A DNA stretch of 64,000 nt from a virus. Below the pieces are notes generated by a model that did no database searches, had not been told where the DNA came from, and worked only from the letters and a program-made list of their open reading frames with translations. The stretch lies in IMG/VR virus record IMGVR_UViG_3300034110_001237, positions 97,698 to 161,697 of that record, one strand, 5' to 3'. Shown in pieces: positions 10,406 through 56,930 of the stretch. The position numbers and the translations under genes are program-made. Each line of letters begins with the position of its first letter. Positions within the stretch are counted from its first letter, which is position 1.

Positions 10406-10479
10406 GGCTGCTTGGCAGAATGGTCATGTACCGGATTGCAAATCCGAGTATGGGGGTTCGATTCCCTCAGCAGCCTCCA
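10406..10479 (+). tRNA. tRNA-Cys (GCA)
   Basis: 74 nt with acceptor GGCTGCT/AGCAGCC, discriminator U and encoded CCA. Anticodon loop TTGCAAA (GCA) lies in a GGA/TCC-type stem, and the T-arm contains GGTTCGATTCC. U73 and GCA are cysteine identity elements. The outermost anticodon-stem pair is C-A, a small irregularity. This is the only ordinary tRNA seen in the window. Confidence 0.95.
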
Positions 10480-14760: not shown

Positions 14761-15285
14761 TTAATCAATTTCTAATCGTTTTAAACCATGTACTCTGGCA
14801 ATTTCATCAATGGCTTGTTGTTCAATAGAAGGTGTTGTTGCGTTATGGATAATCTCCTTATCCGTAAATCCATGATGAATTTTGTACGCAGTTTCTCCTG
14901 TAATTCCACCTTTATAGAGAATGTCTGCTCTTATTTGTTCTTTGTAATAATTTATGACAGGATGTTCGATGTTGGAAAATAGATCGGATATTAAACCTTT
15001 GTAAATCATGTTATTAAATTTTGTTATTTTTCGGTTTAAAAAAGATTCAAGAAATGATATGGCAAATGTGAACAAACCACCAAAAACAAAAAATGTCCAT
15101 AAATAGTTCATATAAAGATTATATTCTTCATCATCTAATATTGTTGCTACTTTTGTCCCAAATCCTATTGTCATCACTAAAAATAGCATCAGTATAACGA
15201 GTCCATATGATTTAATTTTATATTTGTAATCGTTAGGATTTTTTTTGTAAAATTCAAATCTTTCTAAAAATTCTTTGTTTTTCAT
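14761..15285 (-). CDS. two-TM membrane protein (paralog of 10532 gene), 174 aa
   Basis: ATG at 15285 has AAAGGAG upstream; the ORF can extend to 15336 but without an RBS. It shares with the gene at 10532 an FEFYKKN N-terminus, two TM helices, MIYKGLISDLFSNIEH and GITGETAYKIHHG. The C-terminal 35 residues diverge. Function unknown. Confidence 0.84.
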   Translation of the reverse strand: MKNKEFLERFEFYKKNPNDYKYKIKSYGLVILMLFLVMTIGFGTKVATILDDEEYNLYMNYLWTFFVFGGLFTFAISFLESFLNRKITKFNNMIYKGLISDLFSNIEHPVINYYKEQIRADILYKGGITGETAYKIHHGFTDKEIIHNATTPSIEQQAIDEIARVHGLKRLEID

Positions 15286-15364
15286 GATACACTCCTTTAT
15301 TATTTTACAGTTTATTAGTAAAAAAAAATTAATCAAATTTATTCAAAAAACTCCTTGAAAGGTA

Positions 15365-15393
15365 TTGATTGCTTCGTTTCTTTTTGCTAGAAT
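15365..15393 (+). promoter_or_regulatory. sigma-70-like promoter of RNA island
   Basis: TTGATT (15365-15370), 17 bp, TAGAAT (15388-15393); the -10 matches that of tRNA-Cys. Confidence 0.72.
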
Positions 15394-15440
15394 GGCTACA
15401 TTGATGAGATGACAACTCAAAAGTCACTCAGAATTGTAAC

Positions 15441-15543
15441 GCGGATGTGTGAGCGTAATAGGAGAGTTGGCCGTCCGTCCTTGAATAAAGGTTGCTCTAC
15501 TGTTGTATTGGTAACGTAGGTTCAAATCCTACCATCTGCACCA
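15441..15543 (+). ncRNA. tRNA-like RNA with non-cloverleaf body, CCA encoded
   Basis: Acceptor GCGGATG (15441-15447) pairs with CATCTGC, discriminator A and encoded CCA end at 15543. T-arm GTAGG-TTCAAAT-CCTAC is canonical. The 65-70 nt between are not a cloverleaf: GAGC (15451-15454) can pair with GCTC (15494-15497), enclosing a large loop with hairpin CCTT-GAATA-AAGG. A D-arm-like hairpin GTTG-TATTGG-TAAC sits immediately before the T-stem, where an anticodon or variable arm would be expected. No anticodon can be assigned. Confidence 0.65.
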
Positions 15544-15549
15544 AATTTC

Positions 15550-15578
15550 TTGATTGTTGTGATGGCTTGTGGTATAAT
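15550..15578 (+). promoter_or_regulatory. sigma-70-like promoter of structured RNA 1
   Basis: TTGATT (15550-15555), 17 bp, TATAAT (15573-15578), beginning 6 nt after the tRNA-like CCA end. Confidence 0.8.
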
Positions 15579-15584
15579 CATCAC

Positions 15585-15838
15585 ATCAAACGAATTAGGA
15601 GCCTTCGTCAAAGAAGGTTGGATAGCAGCGGTGTCGCGGGCAAGCTATCAAGAAAGGTGAGAAATACTCCCTTTCATAGTAACAAAGTCCATCAGGGTGC
15701 TGTTTGCCTTGATTAAAACGCTTAGGTGAAGCGGTTCTTTGTTACGAACTTATTTGTCAATTAGCGAAGGAATTATAGTCCTAGTGGCTATGATTAAAAC
15801 GGTTAGGTGGACTGGCCTTCGTTAAGACCAATTTTAAA
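15585..15838 (+). ncRNA. structured RNA 1 (paralog of RNA 2), with two three-way-junction domains
   Basis: Non-coding transcript from the promoter at 15550-15578. In order: conserved AACGAATTAGGAGC, hairpin CCTTC/GAAGG, hairpin GATAGC/GCTATC carrying AGCGGTGTCGCGGGC, and hairpin AAAGG/CCTTT. Next is a three-way junction closed by GTAACAAAG (15679-15687) with CTTTGTTAC (15737-15745). A second junction is closed by TTAGCGAAGG (15761-15770) with CCTTCGTTAA (15816-15825). Each junction holds GATTAAAA followed by a 5-bp hairpin with loop AGGTG. The first four elements and the first junction recur in RNA 2 with compensatory changes. Not a family I recognise. Confidence 0.78.
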
Positions 15839-15840
15839 GG

Positions 15841-15869
15841 TTGTTATTTACAGGTAATTGATGTATAAT
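15841..15869 (+). promoter_or_regulatory. sigma-70-like promoter of structured RNA 2
   Basis: TTGTTA (15841-15846), 17 bp, TATAAT (15864-15869). Confidence 0.75.
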
Positions 15870-15875
15870 AACTTC

Positions 15876-16081
15876 CAGTTAAACGAATACGGAGCAGCAG
15901 TTAAATGTTGCTGAATGGTAGCGGTGGTCGGGCGAGCCATTGTGTGAAGGGGAGGTGATTTCTTAGTCCCTCTCTTAGCAACAAGGGAATTAAGATGTTG
16001 TTTGTCTTGATTAACACGGTTGGGTGAACCGGCCCTTGTTGCAAACCTTATTCCAAAGAGTTGTCGATGACAGCTTTTTTT
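15876..16081 (+). ncRNA. structured RNA 2 (paralog of RNA 1)
   Basis: Same order of elements as RNA 1: AACGAATACGGAGC, hairpin CAGCA/TGCTG, hairpin AATGG/CCATT carrying AGCGGTGGTCGGGCG, hairpin GGAGG/CCTCT, then one three-way junction. The junction is closed by GCAACAAGGG (15978-15987) with CCCTTGTTGC (16033-16042) and contains hairpin AAGAT/GTCTT, GATTAACA, and hairpin CGGTT-GGGTG-AACCG. Helix sequences differ from RNA 1 while pairing is kept. It ends in its own terminator. Confidence 0.8.
16059..16081 (+). terminator. intrinsic terminator of RNA 2
   Basis: AGTTGTC-GAT-GACAGCT hairpin and seven T. Confidence 0.85.
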
Positions 16082-16088
16082 GTTTTAT

Positions 16089-16263
16089 GCCCTATAGTCT
16101 AATGGATAATCATTGACAGACTGACAAATTAGTCAGAATCATTCAGGTTAAACTGAATGTGAAGTTGAAAATGGTAACTTTTCGGTTCATGCAAAACCGA
16201 AAAGGAGGACGCCACGTATGTATGTTGGTGGAGATGCAGGTTCGATTCCTGCTTAGGGTACCA
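16089..16263 (+). ncRNA. oversized tRNA-like RNA (175 nt), CCA encoded
   Basis: The 5' end GCCCTAT-AG-TCTAATGGATAA looks like a normal tRNA 5' half; the 3' end has T-arm GCAGG-TTCGATT-CCTGC, TTAGGGT, discriminator A and CCA. About 100 nt more than a tRNA lie between. Internal hairpins: CTGAC-AAATTA-GTCAG (16121-16136), CATTCAG-GTTAAA-CTGAATG (16140-16159), a D-arm-like GTTGAAAATGGTAAC, and a 10-bp hairpin CTTTTCGGTT/AACCGAAAAG. The insert is far shorter than a group I intron. No anticodon is assignable with confidence. Confidence 0.65.
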
Positions 16264-16286
16264 ATTTAATGAATGTGGAGATTATC

Positions 16287-16499
16287 ATGATTAAGAATAA
16301 CGAATTTGCAAGTGATTATGCTAAACAACTTGTATCTAACATGACTCTTGAACAACGCCAAATGGCATTTAAACACCTTGAAAGTTTTTTTGATGAAGTT
16401 ACAATTGCAACCATGAAATATGATGCACAATACATTGGTGAAGAGCGAGCAGCGATGGACCGTGCCCTTGCTGAGTTGGATGCTAAACCTTCTGTTTAA
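16287..16499 (+). CDS. small helical protein, 70 aa
   Basis: ATG at 16287 follows GTGGAG by 6 nt, 23 nt after the CCA of the tRNA-like RNA, so it probably shares that transcript. All-helical, mildly acidic, with MTLEQRQMAFKHLESFFDEV and EERAAMDRALAELDAK. Unrecognised. Its location inside the RNA island raises the possibility that it binds one of the RNAs. Confidence 0.8.
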   Translation: MIKNNEFASDYAKQLVSNMTLEQRQMAFKHLESFFDEVTIATMKYDAQYIGEERAAMDRALAELDAKPSV

Positions 16500-16700
16500 T
16501 GGGATACCTTTTTATTGGTGAATACTCAATTTATTGAGGTCGTAGGCTAATCCCTTCTTCACCAGCCAGATTTGCTGTAGGCTCTTGTAGCCTGTCCGAC
16601 CGGGTTGTGACCGGGCAGTACCAGACGGTACCCATTTAGGTGGAGTCAATAAGGCGTAGGTAACTGGTTCCTATTGCAGCAATGATATTATTAACACTAT
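16500..16700 (+). ncRNA. putative structured RNA
   Basis: 200 nt without an ORF. Closing complementarity TGGG(A)TACC (16500-16508) with GGTACCCA; nested TGGTGAA with TTCACCA, hairpin CTCAAT-TT-ATTGAG, hairpin AGGCT-CTTGT-AGCCT, and a CCGGG-rich hairpin. The downstream string TTTAGGTGGAGTC recalls the AGGTG loop of the RNAs at 15.6-16.0 kb. It lies between two small ORFs, probably in one transcript. It could be a 5' UTR element of the 53-aa gene. Confidence 0.6.
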
Positions 16701-16712
16701 TGAGAGAATATT

Positions 16713-16748
16713 ATGCCGACATATGAAAAAATCTGGACACGATTATAA
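16713..16748 (+). CDS. possible mini-ORF, 11 aa
   Basis: Reads MPTYEKIWTRL with GAGAGA upstream, just before the 53-aa gene. Possibly a translated leader; weakly supported. Confidence 0.3.
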   Translation: MPTYEKIWTRL

Positions 16749-16773
16749 AATGTTAACCCTAGGAGGGTAAATT

Positions 16774-16935
16774 ATGTCCAGAAGTGTAAAAGGCAGTAAA
16801 GGTTGTGGTTATGAATATTGGTCTAAACGTCCTATGTGCTATTCTTCTCCCGGTCGTTGGGCAAAGCAGAAATGCCATAGAATTGAAAGACAACATGATA
16901 AAGAGTTAATCAGAACTGAACTCAAAGATCTTTGA
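16774..16935 (+). CDS. small basic phage protein, 53 aa
   Basis: ATG at 16774 with AGGAGGG 6 nt upstream. It starts MSRSVKGSKGCGYEYWSKRP and has two further Cys and a basic C-terminal helix. Small proteins with a KGSKGxGYEYWS[KR]RP core are familiar as uncharacterised genes in many T4-like and other large phages (recalled). Possibly RNA-binding from charge and setting. Embedded in the RNA island, immediately followed by another structured RNA. Confidence 0.82.
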   Translation: MSRSVKGSKGCGYEYWSKRPMCYSSPGRWAKQKCHRIERQHDKELIRTELKDL

Positions 16936-17131
16936 GTGGTTCTTACAGAGCAAGACCTGCATTAAGTGAAGACTGGCAGCTTGATACGGGAATTATACCG
17001 GCCCAGCGGAATAGTGGAGCGAGAGGTGTAAACCTTGACCTTAGAAGCGATGATTTCCGGTGACTTGGTGGTGGAATTAGAACCACATAGTACATAGTAC
17101 GGGAAAAGACTTCTTATGAAGTCTTTTTTTT
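16936..17131 (+). ncRNA. putative structured RNA with closing stem and terminator
   Basis: Begins at the stop codon of the 53-aa gene. GTGGTTCT (16936-16943) pairs perfectly with AGAACCAC (17079-17086), closing about 150 nt. Inside are CTGC/GCAG, GC-rich CCGG segments and hairpin AGGT-GTAA-ACCT with a GNRA tetraloop. A terminator follows at 17104. No ORF of note. Family unknown. Confidence 0.68.
17104..17131. terminator. bidirectional terminator
   Basis: AAAAGACTTC-TTAT-GAAGTCTTTTTTTT. Confidence 0.88.
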
Positions 17132-45166: not shown

Positions 45167-46162
45167 ATGTCAAAAATCTTGACCGGCGATAGACCAACAG
45201 GTTCACTTCATCTGGGGCATTTTGTAGGTTCCTTACACAACCGTGTGAAACTTCAGCACTTGCACCAGCAAACTATTTTGATTGCTGATAATCAGGCGTT
45301 AACTGACAATATGGGAAATCCTACGAAAGTCCGTGATAACGTCATTGAAGTTGCTAAAGACTATCTGGCTTGTGGGATTGATCCTAGTAAGACCACTATT
45401 TGTGTTCAATCACACCTTCCGGCTATTGCCGAATTGACATTGCTGTATCTTAACCTTGTAACTGTCTCCCGTTTAGAACGGAATCCTACCATTCGTGATG
45501 AGATTAAAGCCAAGAACTTTGAGCGAAGTATTCCAGCCGGTTTCTTAGCTTATCCAGTAGCACAAGCCGCAGACATTACTGCATTCAAGGCCGATCTTGT
45601 TCCAGTCGGTGAAGACCAGCTTCCATTGATTGAGCAAGCGAATGAAATCGTCCACAAATTAAACACTCAGCTAGGCTTCGAAATTGTTCCATCCATAAAA
45701 GCTCTTACTTCAACAGTGGCACGACTACCAAGCCTTGATGGTAAGTCTAAAATGAGCAAATCGCTTGGTAATACTATCAATCTATACGCAAGCATGAAAG
45801 ACATTCAAAAGGCCGTCAATTTGATGTTTACTGACAGTAATCATCTTCGCGTTGAAGATCCCGGTAAAGTAGAAGGCAACGTGGTGTTTACTTACCTTGA
45901 TGCGTTTGATCCCGATGTGAATGAGGTGGCTAACCTGAAAGAGTTTTATCAGCGTGGTGGTTTAGGTGATGGCACTTTAAAAAAACGTCTGGTTGGTGTT
46001 TTAGAAACGGTTATTGCTCCTATCCGAGAACAAAGACTAATACTCAATACTCAGCATGATTTTGTACTTGATGTGTTGAAGCAAGGTACGTTTCAAGCAA
46101 AAGCTGAAACTGATCAAAACGTCAATGAGATTAAAGATGCTTTTGGTTTTTTTAAATTTTAA
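45167..46162 (+). CDS. trpS: tryptophanyl-tRNA synthetase
   Basis: PTGSLHLGHFVG near the N-terminus (residues ~11-22) carries the class I HIGH motif and SKMSKSLGN (~198-206) the KMSKS motif. Length of 331 aa is normal for the bacterial enzyme. QAADI and PVGEDQ are the usual tryptophan and adenylate elements. AGGAG RBS, own promoter. It charges tRNA-Trp in the cytoplasm. No tRNA-Trp gene is seen in the window. Phage-borne full-length TrpRS is uncommon. Confidence 0.97.
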   Translation: MSKILTGDRPTGSLHLGHFVGSLHNRVKLQHLHQQTILIADNQALTDNMGNPTKVRDNVIEVAKDYLACGIDPSKTTICVQSHLPAIAELTLLYLNLVTVSRLERNPTIRDEIKAKNFERSIPAGFLAYPVAQAADITAFKADLVPVGEDQLPLIEQANEIVHKLNTQLGFEIVPSIKALTSTVARLPSLDGKSKMSKSLGNTINLYASMKDIQKAVNLMFTDSNHLRVEDPGKVEGNVVFTYLDAFDPDVNEVANLKEFYQRGGLGDGTLKKRLVGVLETVIAPIREQRLILNTQHDFVLDVLKQGTFQAKAETDQNVNEIKDAFGFFKF

Positions 46163-51463: not shown

Positions 51464-52246
51464 ATGAGTTTTAAAGCAGATATACAGAAATTTAGTTATC
51501 ATGAATGGAGCCAGTTTCCGGCAGAATTTCATGTAGCTATTAAAATGAAATTACTTACGTTGCTTAAAACTGTCTGCAACATCGATCTATCCACAATATC
51601 TTATGATGATGCAAATTATTTTCAATTCGACAGTGATTATAAACAACATCAGAAAATTAAATATCATTTTAATTATACAGGAACAGATGCTGGTGAAGCG
51701 GAAGCTCTTGTTATATTGAGTGGAGAACGATTTTTAGTCACTTTTCAGTTTTACAAAAAGGAAAAGCACCCTAACCTTCCAGCCGGAGCCTATTGTGTCG
51801 ATATCGACGTAGATGAATGGTTAAGATATATTCGTGCAGAATTTGAGACTCGCTATGATTTTGGCTGGAAATTGAGTAATCCGAAACATCGTGCGACTTT
51901 CTTTTTTTATAAAGTTCTTGATAAAAATCTTAAACTAAGCACAGTTATCAATTGTATCAATAGAAATAGTCGTAAAACACATACTTTGCTTAAACCAAAA
52001 GATCTTCCATTCTTGTTTTTTGAAAACAATCATCACTTTTATGACACGTTGAAAGAAATGTTAGAGTGTTGCGAGATGCAACCGAATCTATTCTATTCTG
52101 TATTTGCAGAATACCCAGATCATGTAGAATTAGCATCAAGCAGTGAATCTGTAAAAAAATTTCTGACCTTATACCATGACCAATTTACAAGGGATTCTTC
52201 GATTGTTGAATCAAGGCTTCTTTTACTCGAAATGCAGGCTATTTAA
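51464..52246 (+). CDS. group-B paralog 1 of 7, 260 aa
   Basis: TTGGAGAG RBS. First of a tandem array of about 250-268-residue soluble proteins. Common plan: N-terminal helix, helix with LL[KQ]xx[CY]xIDL, strand, V-x-[VI]D-x-[DN]-[LW] block, helix near the end with F[AP]EYP and a final VESRLLLLEMQAI. This copy is the most divergent and lacks the usual DHDLNF string. Function unknown. Confidence 0.85.
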   Translation: MSFKADIQKFSYHEWSQFPAEFHVAIKMKLLTLLKTVCNIDLSTISYDDANYFQFDSDYKQHQKIKYHFNYTGTDAGEAEALVILSGERFLVTFQFYKKEKHPNLPAGAYCVDIDVDEWLRYIRAEFETRYDFGWKLSNPKHRATFFFYKVLDKNLKLSTVINCINRNSRKTHTLLKPKDLPFLFFENNHHFYDTLKEMLECCEMQPNLFYSVFAEYPDHVELASSSESVKKFLTLYHDQFTRDSSIVESRLLLLEMQAI

Positions 52247-52247
52247 T

Positions 52248-53045
52248 ATGACCACTATTCACACACAATTACTGATGAGCAAAAACATTCATAAGTTTGA
52301 TGATGATCTTAACAATCAAATCATTGAAAAGCTTTTACACATATTACAGTCTATTTTTGATGTCGATTTAATGATTGAATATAAAGATTTCATGTTAAAA
52401 CCAGTTTCATTTGGTATGGCTATTCATGTTGAATACTCGTTTAAATATGGAATGGTGTCTGTGTTAGCAAAAAATAATGAGATGACTGTTTCTTTTGTTT
52501 TTGATCGAGATAAATGCAATAATCTTTATATTCCATTTAACTGCACACGGTGCGAAGTTCTTGTTGATGATGATCTAAACTTTGAAAAAGCTGTTTTTAA
52601 TTTCTATTCAACCATTAATAAACCTAAAATTGAAACTAAATACGCTTCAAAATATGTCGGTTCAGTTTTGGTATCAGATCCTCATCATGCGACTATTGAT
52701 ATTCGTCGGACGATAGATAAACAAGGGAAATTTTCTACATGGATTACTTATGACAATTTTTATTCAAAACTGGGTGATTATACAGAATTAAATATTTCAG
52801 AATTGCATAAAGTATTCTTTACACCAGATAAGCATTTTGAAGAGTTCTTTGTTAAAATAATGATGACATTAAAGACACGGCCTCAAGAGTTTTCTTCTGT
52901 CTTTACTGATTACCCAACCCATACTCAAATTATGCACAATAAAACATTAGCGGTTAACTTTTTGAATTTGTTAGGCGATGACTATTTTAATCGTTTTCAT
53001 GTGTTGGAAGCTAACCTGTTATTACTTGATATGCAGGTCATATGA
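52248..53045 (+). CDS. group-B paralog 2 of 7, 265 aa
   Basis: The ATG follows the previous stop by 1 nt; the SD is AGG in ATGCAGG, the Met-Gln codons of the previous gene. Contains VLVDDDLNFEKAVFNFYS, FSSVFTDYP and the tail EANLLLLDMQVI. Function unknown. Confidence 0.85.
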   Translation: MTTIHTQLLMSKNIHKFDDDLNNQIIEKLLHILQSIFDVDLMIEYKDFMLKPVSFGMAIHVEYSFKYGMVSVLAKNNEMTVSFVFDRDKCNNLYIPFNCTRCEVLVDDDLNFEKAVFNFYSTINKPKIETKYASKYVGSVLVSDPHHATIDIRRTIDKQGKFSTWITYDNFYSKLGDYTELNISELHKVFFTPDKHFEEFFVKIMMTLKTRPQEFSSVFTDYPTHTQIMHNKTLAVNFLNLLGDDYFNRFHVLEANLLLLDMQVI

Positions 53046-53046
53046 C

Positions 53047-53832
53047 ATGACTACACTCTTAGATAGAATTTCAATCATACAAAAAGAACAGCTTCCTGAT
53101 GATCTTGATTTTGACATTTCAAGTAAATTAAAAACATTGTTGAAAATTACTTTTAATGAAAACTTGTCAGACCCATATGATCTGAATTGTATTGAGCTTT
53201 TAGAGGTTTTTATTTATGACAACAATAAAAAAATAGACATTTCGTATTTTTTCAAATTTGGTATAGCTTTAATTTATTTTCATCGTGATCTTGGTATGTT
53301 GAAAGTTTTATTTCTATGTAATCAAAATAATAATAATTTATATAATTGTGATGTCAATTATGAAGTAGTTGTTGATGACGACCTTAATTTTCAAAGTTTC
53401 TCATTCTGGCGATTATTTGAATTCTCGAAGGACTTTAGAGACAATAAAAAATATACGGCGGCATGGTCAAACTTATTATTTCATATTGAAATGGATAATT
53501 TTTTCAATTTTAGTAAAAATTTTCTATATCGTAATGAAGAAAGTTATAATATATCACCAGATGATAAAAAAAATCTTTTTGATTATGGACTAAATCCTGT
53601 TTTTTATCTTTCTAGCCGTCATTTTGATGAGTTGTTGTTAAAATTTTTAAAATATTGCATAGTAAATACTCAACATTTTTATGTTATGTTTCCTCATTAT
53701 CCAAATCATATTTGCTGTATGCAATCACTCAGTAAAACAGTTGACTTGTTAAATATTTTTTGTGAAGAATATAGAGACAATTTGACAATTTTGGAGTATA
53801 ATCTCTTATTACTTGATATGCAGGGCATTTAA
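53047..53832 (+). CDS. group-B paralog 3 of 7, 261 aa
   Basis: Starts 1 nt after the stop of paralog 2 (TGAC then ATG). VVVDDDLNFQSFSFW, FYVMFPHYPNHI, then EYNLLLLDMQGI. More divergent, with Asn-rich segments. Function unknown. Confidence 0.85.
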   Translation: MTTLLDRISIIQKEQLPDDLDFDISSKLKTLLKITFNENLSDPYDLNCIELLEVFIYDNNKKIDISYFFKFGIALIYFHRDLGMLKVLFLCNQNNNNLYNCDVNYEVVVDDDLNFQSFSFWRLFEFSKDFRDNKKYTAAWSNLLFHIEMDNFFNFSKNFLYRNEESYNISPDDKKNLFDYGLNPVFYLSSRHFDELLLKFLKYCIVNTQHFYVMFPHYPNHICCMQSLSKTVDLLNIFCEEYRDNLTILEYNLLLLDMQGI

Positions 53833-53833
53833 A

Positions 53834-54598
53834 ATGACTAACATCTATGACGCAATGGTACACTTTAAAAAGACCAAAGAATCTCTATGGGGGATTAGTC
53901 CATTGGTTAGCTCTAAACTTGTGCCCTTATTTCAACAGGCTACTGGCATAGAGCTTCTGGGTGATGAACAGCATTTCACCAACAATATCAGCGTCTGTGG
54001 TTTGGAAGTCGCTATGGATTACTTCTTTAAATACGGCTCAGCCACATTAAGTTTGAAAAATGATGAGCTAGAAGTAGGTTTTTATTTTATTAATAAACCA
54101 GATGATGTTTATCCGACTCCCTTTGATGCCAAACAATGTAGGGTTTATATTGATCGTGATTTTAACTTTAAACAGGCTATTTTCAATTATCATGTTAGTT
54201 TTTCCAAAGCTCTTCTAAATAATTATGACAAAAGTGCTGTATATGCAGCCATTAAAATTCAAAAAATCATTGAACAGGAATCAACAAGAACTACTTTTGG
54301 CTATCAAAATCTACTTTCTAAAGCAAAAGAGTATACGTCACTTCATGATAAAGGGCTTGATGAGGATTTCTTTGAAACTGATGTGAAATTTGAATTGTTT
54401 TTTGTTAAGTTCATGGAAACTTGTGCTAAAAGACCTTACGAGTTCTATGAATTATTTCCAGAATATCCAAGCTATATTGATTTCATGGAAAAGATGTACA
54501 AAGCAGTTGAATTCTTGAACCTATTTAACTTCCAATACATTAATCAGTTTGAGGTGTTAGAATCTAAACTTATCTTACTTGATATGCAGGTTATTTAA
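53834..54598 (+). CDS. group-B paralog 4 of 7, 254 aa
   Basis: Stop-to-start distance 1 nt, SD in the preceding ATGCAGG. VYIDRDFNFKQAIFNYHVSFS, FYELFPEYPSYIDFM and ESKLILLDMQVI. Function unknown. Confidence 0.85.
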   Translation: MTNIYDAMVHFKKTKESLWGISPLVSSKLVPLFQQATGIELLGDEQHFTNNISVCGLEVAMDYFFKYGSATLSLKNDELEVGFYFINKPDDVYPTPFDAKQCRVYIDRDFNFKQAIFNYHVSFSKALLNNYDKSAVYAAIKIQKIIEQESTRTTFGYQNLLSKAKEYTSLHDKGLDEDFFETDVKFELFFVKFMETCAKRPYEFYELFPEYPSYIDFMEKMYKAVEFLNLFNFQYINQFEVLESKLILLDMQVI

Positions 54599-54599
54599 T

Positions 54600-55406
54600 A
54601 TGAAAACAATTTATGAGCAATTGATGGAATTGAAAGATGTAAAAAGTCTTCATAGATCGGAGACAACTTTATTTTTAGGTGCCGATTGTATTGTTGGTGA
54701 CGATGTTATTGATGATATTTTAGTTAACGAGAAACTTATAGAGTTGTTTTACAAAGCTTACAGTATTCAAGAACCCCTTGAACAAATTTTTTTTGAGAGG
54801 AATATATCATCTATTGGCCTTCGAATAAGTGTCGCTTATAATTTTCAGTATGGTTCAGTTCACCTTGCAGTTGAAAACAACAAACTATTAGTGACTTTTT
54901 ATCATAAAGATGACTGGTTTAAAGCTCCATTTGGAGCAGATCGTTGTATGGTTTCTGTAGATCATAATTTGAATTTTATTCAATCTGAATATTCTACTTA
55001 TTTTGCATTTTTAAACAGTGTTCTGCATAACAATGGTGGGTATGCTGGATATAACCATATGCAGATTAAACAATTTACTGATTCTGCTGGTACACGCAAT
55101 CAACTTGCTTTTTGTCACCCTGATGACAATGACGATTTATTTAAAGCAGCACCAGAAGGCAAGCTGGATAAACGTTTTTCTATACCCAATGTTCAATTTG
55201 AGAATACATTTCTTCAAATTATTGATTTTGTGACAGATAGACCGCATGAATTTTATGCTATTTTTCCTGAGTATCCAAGTTTTTCTGAATGCGTAGATAG
55301 TGCAGATGGAATTATTAACTTTGTTAACTTATTTGTTGAACAGTATTTTAATGACAATGAACGCTTACAACAACACTTGTTATTACTTGATATGCAGGCG
55401 ATTTAA
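54600..55406 (+). CDS. group-B paralog 5 of 7, 268 aa
   Basis: Starts 1 nt after the previous stop. VSVDHNLNFIQSEYSTYFAF, FYAIFPEYPSFSECV and QQHLLLLDMQAI. Function unknown. Confidence 0.85.
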   Translation: MKTIYEQLMELKDVKSLHRSETTLFLGADCIVGDDVIDDILVNEKLIELFYKAYSIQEPLEQIFFERNISSIGLRISVAYNFQYGSVHLAVENNKLLVTFYHKDDWFKAPFGADRCMVSVDHNLNFIQSEYSTYFAFLNSVLHNNGGYAGYNHMQIKQFTDSAGTRNQLAFCHPDDNDDLFKAAPEGKLDKRFSIPNVQFENTFLQIIDFVTDRPHEFYAIFPEYPSFSECVDSADGIINFVNLFVEQYFNDNERLQQHLLLLDMQAI

Positions 55407-55407
55407 T

Positions 55408-56163
55408 ATGATGACACTTTATGAACAGTTTACTGCAGTTAGAACAGCCGAGAAAAACTGGATGTATAAACCTGATGTTCAACAAAAATTGATTGATATA
55501 TTTAAAATCGTTTGTAACATCGATCTTTCTAGTGAAGAGATTCCATTTAAACCAGATGGTGGATCTTTTGGAATGGAAATTGTGTATAACTATAAATTTA
55601 AATATGGTAGAGTCTATGTTCAAACTGAAAAACAAGAAATGCAAGTTATGTTTATTTTTGATAACCCTCATGAATTAAATATTCCTTTTACGAATCATTC
55701 ACGATCAAACCGTTGTACAGTTAAGGTTGATCATAATTTGAACTTTATAGAAGCTCGTTTTGGTTTTTACAGGTCTTTTTCCAATAGAACATTGGTTAAA
55801 GATGTCTCTGGTTACGTTTTATTTCGTTTTGAAACCATAAACGATGGTACTAACATCTTTAATAGTGTTTCTTACAGTTACAGCATGGAATCGGATGACT
55901 ATATAGATTTAATTCCCTATGGTCTTATCGATTATTCAATACCTAATAATGACTTTGAACAAATATTAATGGATTTTATGACTTTTTGTTCCGAAGAACC
56001 AGAAGATTTCTATAACGTTTTTGTTGAATATCCGAATTACGATGATCTTATGACCAGCGTTGACAACTTGGTTATATTCTTAAACCTTCTAAAACAACAA
56101 TACATTGAAAACAGAGAAATTTTGCAATCACGTATATTGTTATTAACCATGCAGGCAATCTAA
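55408..56163 (+). CDS. group-B paralog 6 of 7, 251 aa
   Basis: ATG ATG at 55408, 1 nt after the previous stop. VKVDHNLNFIEARFGFYRSFS, FYNVFVEYPNYDDLM and QSRILLLTMQAI. Function unknown. Confidence 0.85.
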   Translation: MMTLYEQFTAVRTAEKNWMYKPDVQQKLIDIFKIVCNIDLSSEEIPFKPDGGSFGMEIVYNYKFKYGRVYVQTEKQEMQVMFIFDNPHELNIPFTNHSRSNRCTVKVDHNLNFIEARFGFYRSFSNRTLVKDVSGYVLFRFETINDGTNIFNSVSYSYSMESDDYIDLIPYGLIDYSIPNNDFEQILMDFMTFCSEEPEDFYNVFVEYPNYDDLMTSVDNLVIFLNLLKQQYIENREILQSRILLLTMQAI

Positions 56164-56165
56164 TT

Positions 56166-56930
56166 ATGACCACTTTCTATGATAGACTTTTATTTGCAAA
56201 AGATTCAACTGACTTACTTTCCGATATTTTAGATGAAATCAGTCAAAAATTACTGCAATTATTGTATGAGTCTTGTCATATTGATTTATCTCATATTGAT
56301 GAACCATTCGTGATGGCTCATCTCGGTACAGATAAAGACTTACATATTCAATACAATACTGTTTTTGGTGGAGCTAACTTTTCATTATTATCTTCTACAC
56401 ATGAGCTAGAGGTTGAATTTGATTTTTCAAAGGAATACCCTACAGACTACTATTACAAGTCAAAATATTGTTACCTAGAAATTGATAATGATATGAACTT
56501 AAAAAAAACTAGATTCAACAACGCTTTTCCATTTTCAAAAGCTGTTTTGGACGGTGCGTATGCTAGTCATGTTTTTTCTTCTCTTCGTATTGATACTTAT
56601 GTTGACTATCTATCAAATGTGTCGAAACATTTTAGTTATGAAAACTACCTCTATCATACATTTCCAAAAGATATGCGAGCTTATGGATTGAGTGCTTATT
56701 TTTATTTTACGAATAAAGATTTTGAAGATCTGTTAGCCACTTTCCTATTTCTTGCGGGTAATCATCCTTTTATCTTTTATGAGTTCTTTAAAGAATATCC
56801 AAGCTATATTGACTTAATGAACAGTATTGATCATATGATTCAATTTTTGGAACTTTTCAAAAACCAATATATTAATGATCCTGATTTATTAAAATCAAAC
56901 ATATTGTTAATTGAAATGAAGTTAATTTAA
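56166..56930 (+). CDS. group-B paralog 7 of 7, 254 aa
   Basis: 2 nt after the previous stop. LEIDNDMNLKKTRFNNAFPFS, FYEFFKEYPSYIDLM and KSNILLIEMKLI: the tail keeps Met but has lost Gln. Last of the array; 63 nt then separate it from the sirtuin. Function unknown. Confidence 0.85.
   Translation: MTTFYDRLLFAKDSTDLLSDILDEISQKLLQLLYESCHIDLSHIDEPFVMAHLGTDKDLHIQYNTVFGGANFSLLSSTHELEVEFDFSKEYPTDYYYKSKYCYLEIDNDMNLKKTRFNNAFPFSKAVLDGAYASHVFSSLRIDTYVDYLSNVSKHFSYENYLYHTFPKDMRAYGLSAYFYFTNKDFEDLLATFLFLAGNHPFIFYEFFKEYPSYIDLMNSIDHMIQFLELFKNQYINDPDLLKSNILLIEMKLI

What the first reader, a model, noticed from the sequence alone, without database searches (positions are those of the whole stretch)
15585..16081. 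Two paralogous structured RNAs with covarying helices
RNA 1 (15585-15838) and RNA 2 (15876-16081) have their own promoters and share the same ordered elements. Helix sequences change but pairing persists (CCTTC/GAAGG versus CAGCA/TGCTG; GATAGC/GCTATC versus AATGG/CCATT; AAAGG/CCTTT versus GGAGG/CCTCT; GTAACAAAG/CTTTGTTAC versus GCAACAAGGG/CCCTTGTTGC). Compensatory change within one genome is good evidence for a selected RNA structure. I do not recognise the family.
Basis: seen in the sequence. Interest (0 to 1): 0.9.

Follow-up and report, generated by a model that had tools for sequence, protein, structure and literature searches.

The report
New structured RNA family, giant phages
Two neighbouring stretches of a giant bacterial virus encode a kind of folded RNA that matches no catalogued family, is kept in shape by paired changes in related viruses, and often lies beside transfer-RNA genes; what it does is still unknown.

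Summary
RNA 1 and RNA 2 fold alike: closing helix P0, hairpins P1, P2 and P3 (bulged U), and P4, which opens into a three-way junction (P5, linker UAAAAC, P6 with loop RGGYG). I found 13 full copies (two in each of five records, three in a 437-kb record) and three part copies, all in one lineage of giant phages (7 records); RNA 1 carries a second junction. On a plain MAFFT alignment of 11 copies 90.5% of cells pair, against 33-50% when partners are slid. Summed covariation is 3.6 to 4.1 times the largest value of a tree-based null. A model trained only on RNA 1-type copies finds RNA 2 and every other known copy. No Rfam family matches. Of 14 starts tested, 11 lie 6-27 nt behind a sigma-70-like promoter. 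Copies or halves stand upstream of tRNA-Cys, tRNA-Asn and tRNA-Arg; two kinds of copy end at a terminator. Best reading: a stand-alone phage RNA acting in trans through the junction (0.5); main rival: a cis-acting 5' element of stable-RNA transcripts (0.32). Function is inferred, not shown.

The parts
15550..15578 (+). sigma-70-like promoter of RNA 1 (TTGATT-17-TATAAT, TG before the -10)
15592..15758 (+). RNA 1 core: P0 to P0', five-way junction with P1, P2, P3 and P4
   Evidence: R1 E=1.2e-40 (it is a training row)
15600..15619 (+). RNA 1 P1 hairpin AGCCTTC/GAAGGTT
15621..15649 (+). RNA 1 P2 hairpin GATAGC/GCTATC with loop AGCGGTGTCGCGGGCAA
15652..15675 (+). RNA 1 P3 hairpin with bulged U (GAAAGG-U-GAG / CUC-CCUUUC)
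15679..15745 (+). RNA 1 three-way junction: P4 GTAACAAAG/CTTTGTTAC, P5, linker TAAAAC, P6 15719-15733
15761..15825 (+). second, free copy of the three-way junction in RNA 1 (TTAGCGAAGG/CCTTCGTTAA)
   Evidence: R2 E=1.1e-16 (a training row)
15841..15869 (+). sigma-70-like promoter of RNA 2 (TTGTTA-17-TATAAT)
15885..16055 (+). RNA 2 core; P0 15885-15892 with 16046-16053
   Evidence: held-out model R3 E=2.1e-25
15893..15912 (+). RNA 2 P1 hairpin AGCAGCA/TGTTGCT (register corrected)
15914..15941 (+). RNA 2 P2 hairpin AATGGT/GCCATT, loop AGCGGTGGTCGGGCGA
15948..15976 (+). RNA 2 P3 hairpin with bulged U
15978..16042 (+). RNA 2 three-way junction: P4 GCAACAAGGG/CCCTTGTTGC, P5, linker TAACAC, P6 16017-16031 (loop GGGTG)
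16055..16079 (+). terminator-like hairpin directly behind RNA 2, followed by a T run
   Evidence: the same hairpin and T run stand behind the RNA 2 copies of L008, L009, L011 and L012

Best explanation
It is a new family of structured non-coding RNAs, 140-170 nt, of one lineage of giant phages. Each RNA is transcribed from its own or a shared sigma-70-like promoter and released either by an intrinsic terminator (RNA 2, the L013 copy) or, I infer, by RNase P cutting at the 5' end of a tRNA right behind it (the second of the two copies before tRNA-Cys). The folded RNA then works in trans. The five-way junction is a scaffold, and the P4-P5-P6 three-way junction, with its nearly invariant linker UAAAAC and its RGGYG hairpin loop, is the contact surface for a protein or ribonucleoprotein of the host's or phage's tRNA, translation or transcription machinery. 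Tandem copies and extra junctions raise the number of binding sites. Shown: the fold, selection on the fold, copy number, promoters and terminators as sequence matches, tRNA adjacency. Inferred: that the RNAs are made, that they are stable, that they act in trans, and what they bind.
For: Structure conserved through paired changes. A model from RNA 1-type copies alone finds the RNA 2-type copies (E 2e-25 to 5e-23), the three full copies of the 437-kb phage (E 9e-29 to 4e-19) and the part copies (E 2e-7, 1.7e-4, 0.007; E-values rough). Two kinds of copy end in a terminator-like hairpin directly behind the fold: RNA 2 in the window and its four relatives, and the L013 copy. Copies are duplicated: RNA 1/RNA 2, two copies before tRNA-Cys of which only the first has a promoter match, and a second junction in RNA 1. 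Only 1 of 11 tRNA clusters of the 437-kb phage has the RNA in front, so it is not a general tRNA leader. GOLLD and ROOL show that phages keep other structured RNAs beside tRNA islands (passages of PMC12286853).
Against: No transcript, partner or phenotype is known. In a divergent phage contig the two halves are split, P1-P3 before tRNA-Arg and P4-P6 before tRNA-Asn, which fits a cis role with each tRNA at least as well. In several transcripts the RNA comes first and has no terminator before the next element (L010a/b, L010c, L034). In the four relatives the ORF behind RNA 2 starts 52-53 nt after the start of the terminator hairpin, leaving little room for a promoter of its own, so read-through may matter; a 180-nt 5'-UTR-derived RNA of phage phiKZ has this very layout (PMC8545117, section 12). 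The sample is small: 7 records, L008 and L011 identical over both RNAs.
Confidence: 0.5

Rival explanations
1. Cis-acting 5' element of phage stable-RNA transcripts: the nascent RNA folds just behind the promoter and recruits a factor, or touches RNA polymerase, so that transcription passes terminators, or so that the transcript is protected or correctly processed. It would work like HK022 put RNA or a 5' stabiliser.
For: The RNA is the first element behind a promoter-like match in five independent starts (W1, W2, L010a, L010c, L034), -10 to fold 6-27 nt, score reached by 2.8% of random positions. Cargo is non-coding: tRNA-Cys, tRNA-Asn and a CTA tRNA, tRNA-Arg, RNA X. Modules are split between two tRNA transcripts in one phage. 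A terminator stands between RNA 2 and the next genes.
Against: A terminator ends the unit directly behind RNA 2 and behind the L013 copy. The transcripts look short, about 0.3-0.5 kb as far as read by eye, hardly in need of an element of 140-170 nt. Tandem copies under one promoter are redundant in cis. 10 of 11 tRNA clusters of the 437-kb phage lack it.
Confidence: 0.32
2. Attenuator-like leader of the ORF behind RNA 2 (window 16269-16499): the fold, or something bound to it, decides whether the terminator at 16055-16079 stops transcription; the released leader may be an RNA in its own right.
For: Promoter, structured RNA, terminator and ORF in this order in the four close relatives; in the window a tRNA-like RNA lies before the ORF.
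Against: The ORF has no relative in the 437-kb phage, and other copies precede tRNAs or RNA X, or end in a terminator. By eye no strand of the fold competes with the terminator arm.
Confidence: 0.08
3. RNA decoy or mimic of a host system (CRISPR-repeat-like RNA anti-CRISPR, antitoxin RNA, RNase decoy): a hairpin followed by AUUAAAAC looks like a crRNA 5' handle (recalled).
For: The nearly invariant AUUAAAAC after a hairpin of free sequence, and the repeated modules.
Against: No Rfam family matches the folds at E up to 5; that Rfam holds CRISPR repeat families is recalled. The conserved P6 hairpin behind the 'handle' has no counterpart in a spacer.
Confidence: 0.05
4. Sequence kept for another reason (protein-coding, or DNA-level elements), with folding incidental.
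For: A 74-aa TTG-start ORF overlaps RNA 1.
Against: Length differences of one or two bases between close relatives (RNA 1 type 167, 168, 169; RNA 2 type 171, 172), and paired changes far beyond a tree null.
Confidence: 0.02

Closest known systems
GOLLD and ROOL RNAs (phage and prophage RNAs beside tRNA islands)
   Same: Phage-encoded structured RNAs of unknown function, often beside tRNA genes (passages of PMC12286853).
   Different: Many GOLLD members exceed 800 nt and the ROOL studied there is 659 nt; here 140-170 nt. No match to any Rfam model. Assembly into cages not testable here.
phiKZ ncRNA candidates, above all the 5'-UTR-p40 RNA
   Same: A jumbo-phage RNA of about 180 nt from the 5' end of a transcript, whose last hairpin may stop transcription before the next ORF (PMC8545117, section 12 read).
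   Different: Described there as two stem-loops. Models R3 and R2 find nothing credible in phiKZ; the best R2 match (E 0.0067) lies inside the PHIKZ039 coding region and lacks the linker.
HK022 put RNA (cis-acting antiterminator)
   Same: Phage RNA copies behind early promoters, two per genome (passages of PMC9378689).
   Different: put is about 70 nt with two stem-loops; this RNA has a five-way and a three-way junction. Antitermination not tested.
Stable RNAs C and D of the phage T4 tRNA cluster (recalled)
   Same: Non-tRNA stable RNAs from a phage tRNA region, function unknown (recalled).
   Different: No sequence comparison beyond Rfam; a literature search found no paper with all its terms.
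phi29 packaging RNA (recalled)
   Same: A phage RNA built around a three-way junction (recalled).
   Different: No Rfam match; several diverged copies per genome here.

Membership tests
Any Rfam 15 family | covariance-model match at the gathering score | tested here: not met
   Window at gathering score: only tRNA at 10406-10476. 15200-16800 at E up to 5: two tRNA fragments and Plastid-ycf2 on the flanking tRNA-like RNAs, mir-67 at 15556-15587 on the minus strand, all below cut-off, none on the folds. L010 with three further copies at E up to 1: none on the copies.
GOLLD / ROOL | encoded by phages beside tRNA genes | tested here: met
   Copies or halves beside tRNA-Cys, tRNA-Asn, tRNA-Arg and two tRNA-like RNAs.
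GOLLD / ROOL | sequence and secondary structure of the family | tested here: not met
   No Rfam match; 140-170 nt. That Rfam 15 holds both models is supported by PMC12286853, which took them from Rfam.
GOLLD / ROOL | homo-oligomeric RNA cage | not testable with these tools
   needs native gel or cryo-EM
HK022 put RNA | about 70 nt, two stem-loops | tested here: not met
   Five helices plus a three-way junction.
HK022 put RNA | promoter-proximal | tested here: met
   11 of 14 starts tested (five independent) lie 6-27 nt behind a -10 match; not so L010b, the second junction of RNA 1, and L013 at its model boundary.
HK022 put RNA | antitermination through the RNA polymerase beta' zinc-binding domain | not testable with these tools
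   needs a transcription assay
mRNA leader / riboswitch of one gene | consistent downstream gene | tested here: not met
   Consistent in the four close relatives, but the ORF has no relative in the 437-kb phage or the MAG contig and downstream features differ there.
General tRNA-operon leader | present before tRNA clusters as a rule | tested here: not met
   1 of 11 tRNA clusters of the 437-kb record; none of three ARAGORN tRNA genes of the window's record.
CRISPR-repeat-like RNA anti-CRISPR | match to a CRISPR repeat family | tested here: inconclusive
   No Rfam match on the folds at E up to 5; repeat collections not searched.

The most novel reading that the evidence does not exclude
A modular RNA whose P4-P5-P6 junction (and separately P1-P3) is a portable binding site that giant phages attach to chosen tRNA and non-coding transcripts, or deploy alone, to bring the tRNA, ribosome or RNA-polymerase machinery under phage control: an RNA-based counterpart of the phages' own tRNA synthetases, with one and the same module used both in cis and in trans.
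Probability: 0.25. Interest if true: 0.85.

Novelty: new variant of a known kind. Interest (0 to 1): 0.62.

Why it matters
Few structured RNAs of giant phages seem to be described, and those beside tRNA islands (GOLLD, ROOL) have no known function. This family is small enough for chemical probing and pull-down, has a detachable module of about 65 nt with nearly invariant loop residues, and exists in paralogues and split halves that give natural variants. It makes the question 'what do phage tRNA-island RNAs bind?' directly testable.

Tried and rejected
Distant relatives were sought without result. Blastn against 50,697 phage records: of 164 records with a match 20 were listed, all over the tRNA-like flanks; for L010, 15 of 97 listed, all over tRNA-Cys; for L034, 15 of 4161 listed, all over the tRNAs. 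R1 (E up to 1) and R2 (E up to 0.1) rang in 0 of 11 named phage records of 143-490 kb (strict filters, no positive control in those calls). R2 in 8 huge-phage records: best E 0.22, three matches not inspected; the 437-kb record, searched beside them, rang. R1 and R3 rang in 0 of 3 (XacN1, LR745206, LR756502). In phiKZ R3 found nothing, and the best R2 match (E 0.0067) is inside a coding region without the linker, so R2 E-values near 0.01 can be chance.

Pattern scans: all 8 scans of viral contigs and the one of genome contigs were used; 6 stretches, all real, 5 contigs; 7 stretches, 5 real; L014 and L015 judged chance; 1 stretch, judged chance, from a pattern I wrote wrongly; 8 stretches, 5 real, 3 judged chance; 5, all real. 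(protein): 29 stretches, 1 relative; 23 stretches from a pattern with one base too many; 58 stretches, 6 real; the other 52 and the 23 have no R2 match at E up to 1. L014 lies behind a tRNA-Thr and reaches R1 E 0.16; I left it out but cannot exclude it. (genomes): 1 stretch, real.

Considered and dropped, by eye or memory only: anti-Shine-Dalgarno pairing of GGUGA motifs (not kept in the L010c P3), CsrA-type sponge (GGA motifs few and mostly in helices), complementarity of the P2 loop to 16S rRNA (short), T-box-like pairing with tRNA ends.

Against the reading: the P1-P3 half copy before tRNA-Arg folds little better than shuffles (z -1.01, 29 of 200 as good), although its minimum-energy fold is the family's. 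Searched against the whole 3.6-Mb assembly the lone L034 junction reaches only E 0.043 with the held-out model R3, the half copy 1.2e-6. Only 1 of 50 pairs is significant in the 11-row test, at E 0.049. P0 has 8 unpaired cells of 77. 4, 5, 6 and 7 of the 10, 20, 30 and 40 best-covarying column pairs are in the structure, few, because unpaired differences between the three lineages covary too.

Full report
What is there. RNA 1 and RNA 2 are two copies of one RNA. The core runs from 15592 to 15758 and from 15885 to 16055. Helix P0 closes a five-way junction that carries P1, P2 (loop with AGCGGUGUCGCGGGC or AGCGGUGGUCGGGCG), P3 (hairpin with a bulged U) and P4; P4 opens into a three-way junction with P5 and P6. 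P5 starts AUY and ends GAU, then comes the linker UAAAAC, then P6 with the loop RGGYG. Behind its core RNA 1 has a second, free copy of the three-way junction. Both RNAs fold better than all 200 shuffles. RNA 2 is followed directly by a terminator-like hairpin.

Relatives. A pattern from P6 hit five further IMG/VR contigs in a scan of the viral collection and one contig of a bacterial MAG in a scan of the genome collection. Records very near the window's may be left out of such scans, by the tool's own note. Model R1 finds 2 copies each in the window's record and in four relatives, and 4 in a 437-kb record, one of them partial. Model R2, for the junction, gives 20 matches with E below 1e-11 in the seven records; the next has E 0.029, and the six weaker places that I looked at did not show the motif. 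On the MAG contig (DJWL01000096.1) 15 of 122 ORFs of 60 aa or more match ORFs of the window's record or of the part of the 437-kb record then held, at E up to 1e-3 (counts), so I take it for a phage contig in a bacterial bin. The family therefore sits, as far as seen, in one lineage. By one 777-aa protein the nearest named phage is Xanthomonas phage XacN1 (45.3% identity over 92%). L008 and L011 are identical over both RNAs, so the independent sample is smaller than the count of records.

Selection on the fold. On a MAFFT alignment of 11 copies, with the structure taken from RNA 2 alone, 90.5% of 597 cells pair; 24 pairs show changes on both sides against 13.9 (sd 2.0) in shuffles, and sliding the partners drops pairing to 33-50%. 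On my hand alignment, which leans to the structure, 523 of 532 cells pair (454 of 455 outside P0). A null that replays the substitutions of a FastTree tree at random places gives a summed covariation of 2.1 (sd 9.1, largest of 150: 32.7) against 118.8 observed, but only 1 of 50 pairs is significant on its own, at E 0.049. For the junction with 15 hand-aligned rows, 283 of 285 cells pair, 13 of 19 pairs change on both sides, the sum is 132.4 against a largest null of 31.9 in 300, and 6 of 19 pairs are significant. As a held-out test, model R3 was built from four RNA 1-type copies with the structure of RNA 1 alone. It finds the RNA 2-type copies at E 2e-25 to 5e-23, the three full copies of the 437-kb phage at E 9e-29 to 4e-19, the lone junctions at E 1.7e-4 and 0.007, and a new half copy at E 2e-7. 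E-values of these models are rough, by the tool's own note.

The new half copy. In the MAG contig P1-P2-P3 stand alone, with 9 nt between P3 and a tRNA-Arg, while P4-P5-P6 stand alone about 80 nt before a tRNA-Asn and a CTA tRNA on the same contig. In the 3.6-Mb assembly both R3 matches at E up to 0.5 fall on this one contig. So the RNA is modular and both halves go with tRNAs. In the 437-kb phage two full copies lie in tandem behind one promoter-like match, the second ending at the base before tRNA-Cys; a third is followed by another conserved non-coding RNA, RNA X; a fourth, degenerate, has a promoter-like match about 100 nt upstream of its junction and ends in a terminator-like hairpin.

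Context. Of 14 starts tested, 11 have a promoter-like match of score 10 or 11 ending 6-27 nt upstream of the fold; these stand for five independent starts (W1, W2, L010a, L010c, L034). 2.8% of random positions of these phages reach score 10. L010b has 8, the second junction of RNA 1 has 4 and L013 at the model boundary has 5. The 437-kb phage has 26 ARAGORN tRNA genes in 11 clusters; one cluster, tRNA-Cys, has the RNA in front.

How it may work. Trans model: discrete ends (terminators, or RNase P at the tRNA behind), tandem dosage and absence from most tRNA clusters. Cis model: first place in stable-RNA transcripts, repeated pairing with different tRNAs, split halves. I give trans 0.5 and cis 0.32. 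Neither has direct evidence. The contact surface is most likely the junction, because its unpaired residues are nearly invariant (linker UAAAA in 14 of 15 rows, loop RGGYG in 15 of 15) while its helices are free to change. In the four close relatives promoter, RNA 2, terminator and a short ORF follow each other, which is also the layout of the phiKZ 5'-UTR-p40 RNA (PMC8545117, section 12 read); an attenuator reading gets 0.08.

Known or new. No Rfam family matches the folds. I searched the held papers for jumbo-phage non-coding RNAs, huge-phage RNAs, covarying phage RNAs and phage RNAs with three-way junctions; seen were 7 of 7, 12 of 1,859, 8 of 8 and 10 of 23 listings. One of them, PMC8545117, reports two phiKZ ncRNA candidates, each described as two stem-loops. 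No listing named an RNA like this one, but most papers were seen only as title and start of abstract, and subscription journals are mostly missing. Of PMC9378689 and PMC12286853 passages were read. GOLLD and ROOL are alike in place and in being unexplained, not in sequence, size or fold. The family is new to these searches; the kind, phage tRNA-island RNA, is known.

Noticed in passing
window 15441-15543: A 103-nt tRNA-like RNA (acceptor GCGGATG/CATCTGC, T-arm, CCA end) without recognisable D or anticodon arms; 122 nt in L012 and 125 nt in L008. ARAGORN calls something there only at a lowered threshold.
   Followed up: partly
window 16089-16263: A tRNA-like RNA of about 175 nt: acceptor stem, T-arm and CCA end around five further hairpins (z -4.63 for 16088-16264). 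It lies between the RNA 2 terminator and ORF 16269; in L008, L009, L011 and L012 the ORF follows the terminator without it.
   Followed up: partly
window 16945-17100, terminator-like hairpin to about 17130: RNA X, a second conserved non-coding RNA: 88-89% identical in two relatives and 78% over 93 nt in the 437-kb phage (L040 401-491), where it follows a copy of the RNA of this report. No Rfam match of note.
   Followed up: partly
window 16535-16715: Stretch conserved at 88% in two relatives, without an obvious ORF; a single-sequence fold of 16500-16775 is no better than shuffles.
   Followed up: no
L172, L174, L175, L176, window 45167-46162, L162 3239-4414: The lineage encodes SerRS, TyrRS, a GatB subunit and a TrpRS/TyrRS-type class I synthetase, an Hsp70 and, by eye, a CysRS next to the junction RNA in the MAG contig.
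   Followed up: partly
Genome contigs DJWL01000096.1 (G006:C124): A contig of a Flavobacteriaceae MAG looks like a giant-phage contig by shared proteins and tRNA genes, probably misbinned.
   Followed up: partly
window 51464-56930: Tandem array of seven paralogous proteins of 254-289 aa ending in variants of LLLDMQ-I; a relative lies on the MAG contig.
   Followed up: no
L010 7866-7941; L034 3096-3171; L041 5948-6021: A tRNA with a predicted four-base anticodon (agaa) and tRNAs with anticodon CTA, possible frameshift and amber suppressors.
   Followed up: no
L014 7230-7275: A weak junction-like match (R1 E 0.16) right behind a tRNA-Thr on an unrelated-looking viral contig; undecided.
   Followed up: no
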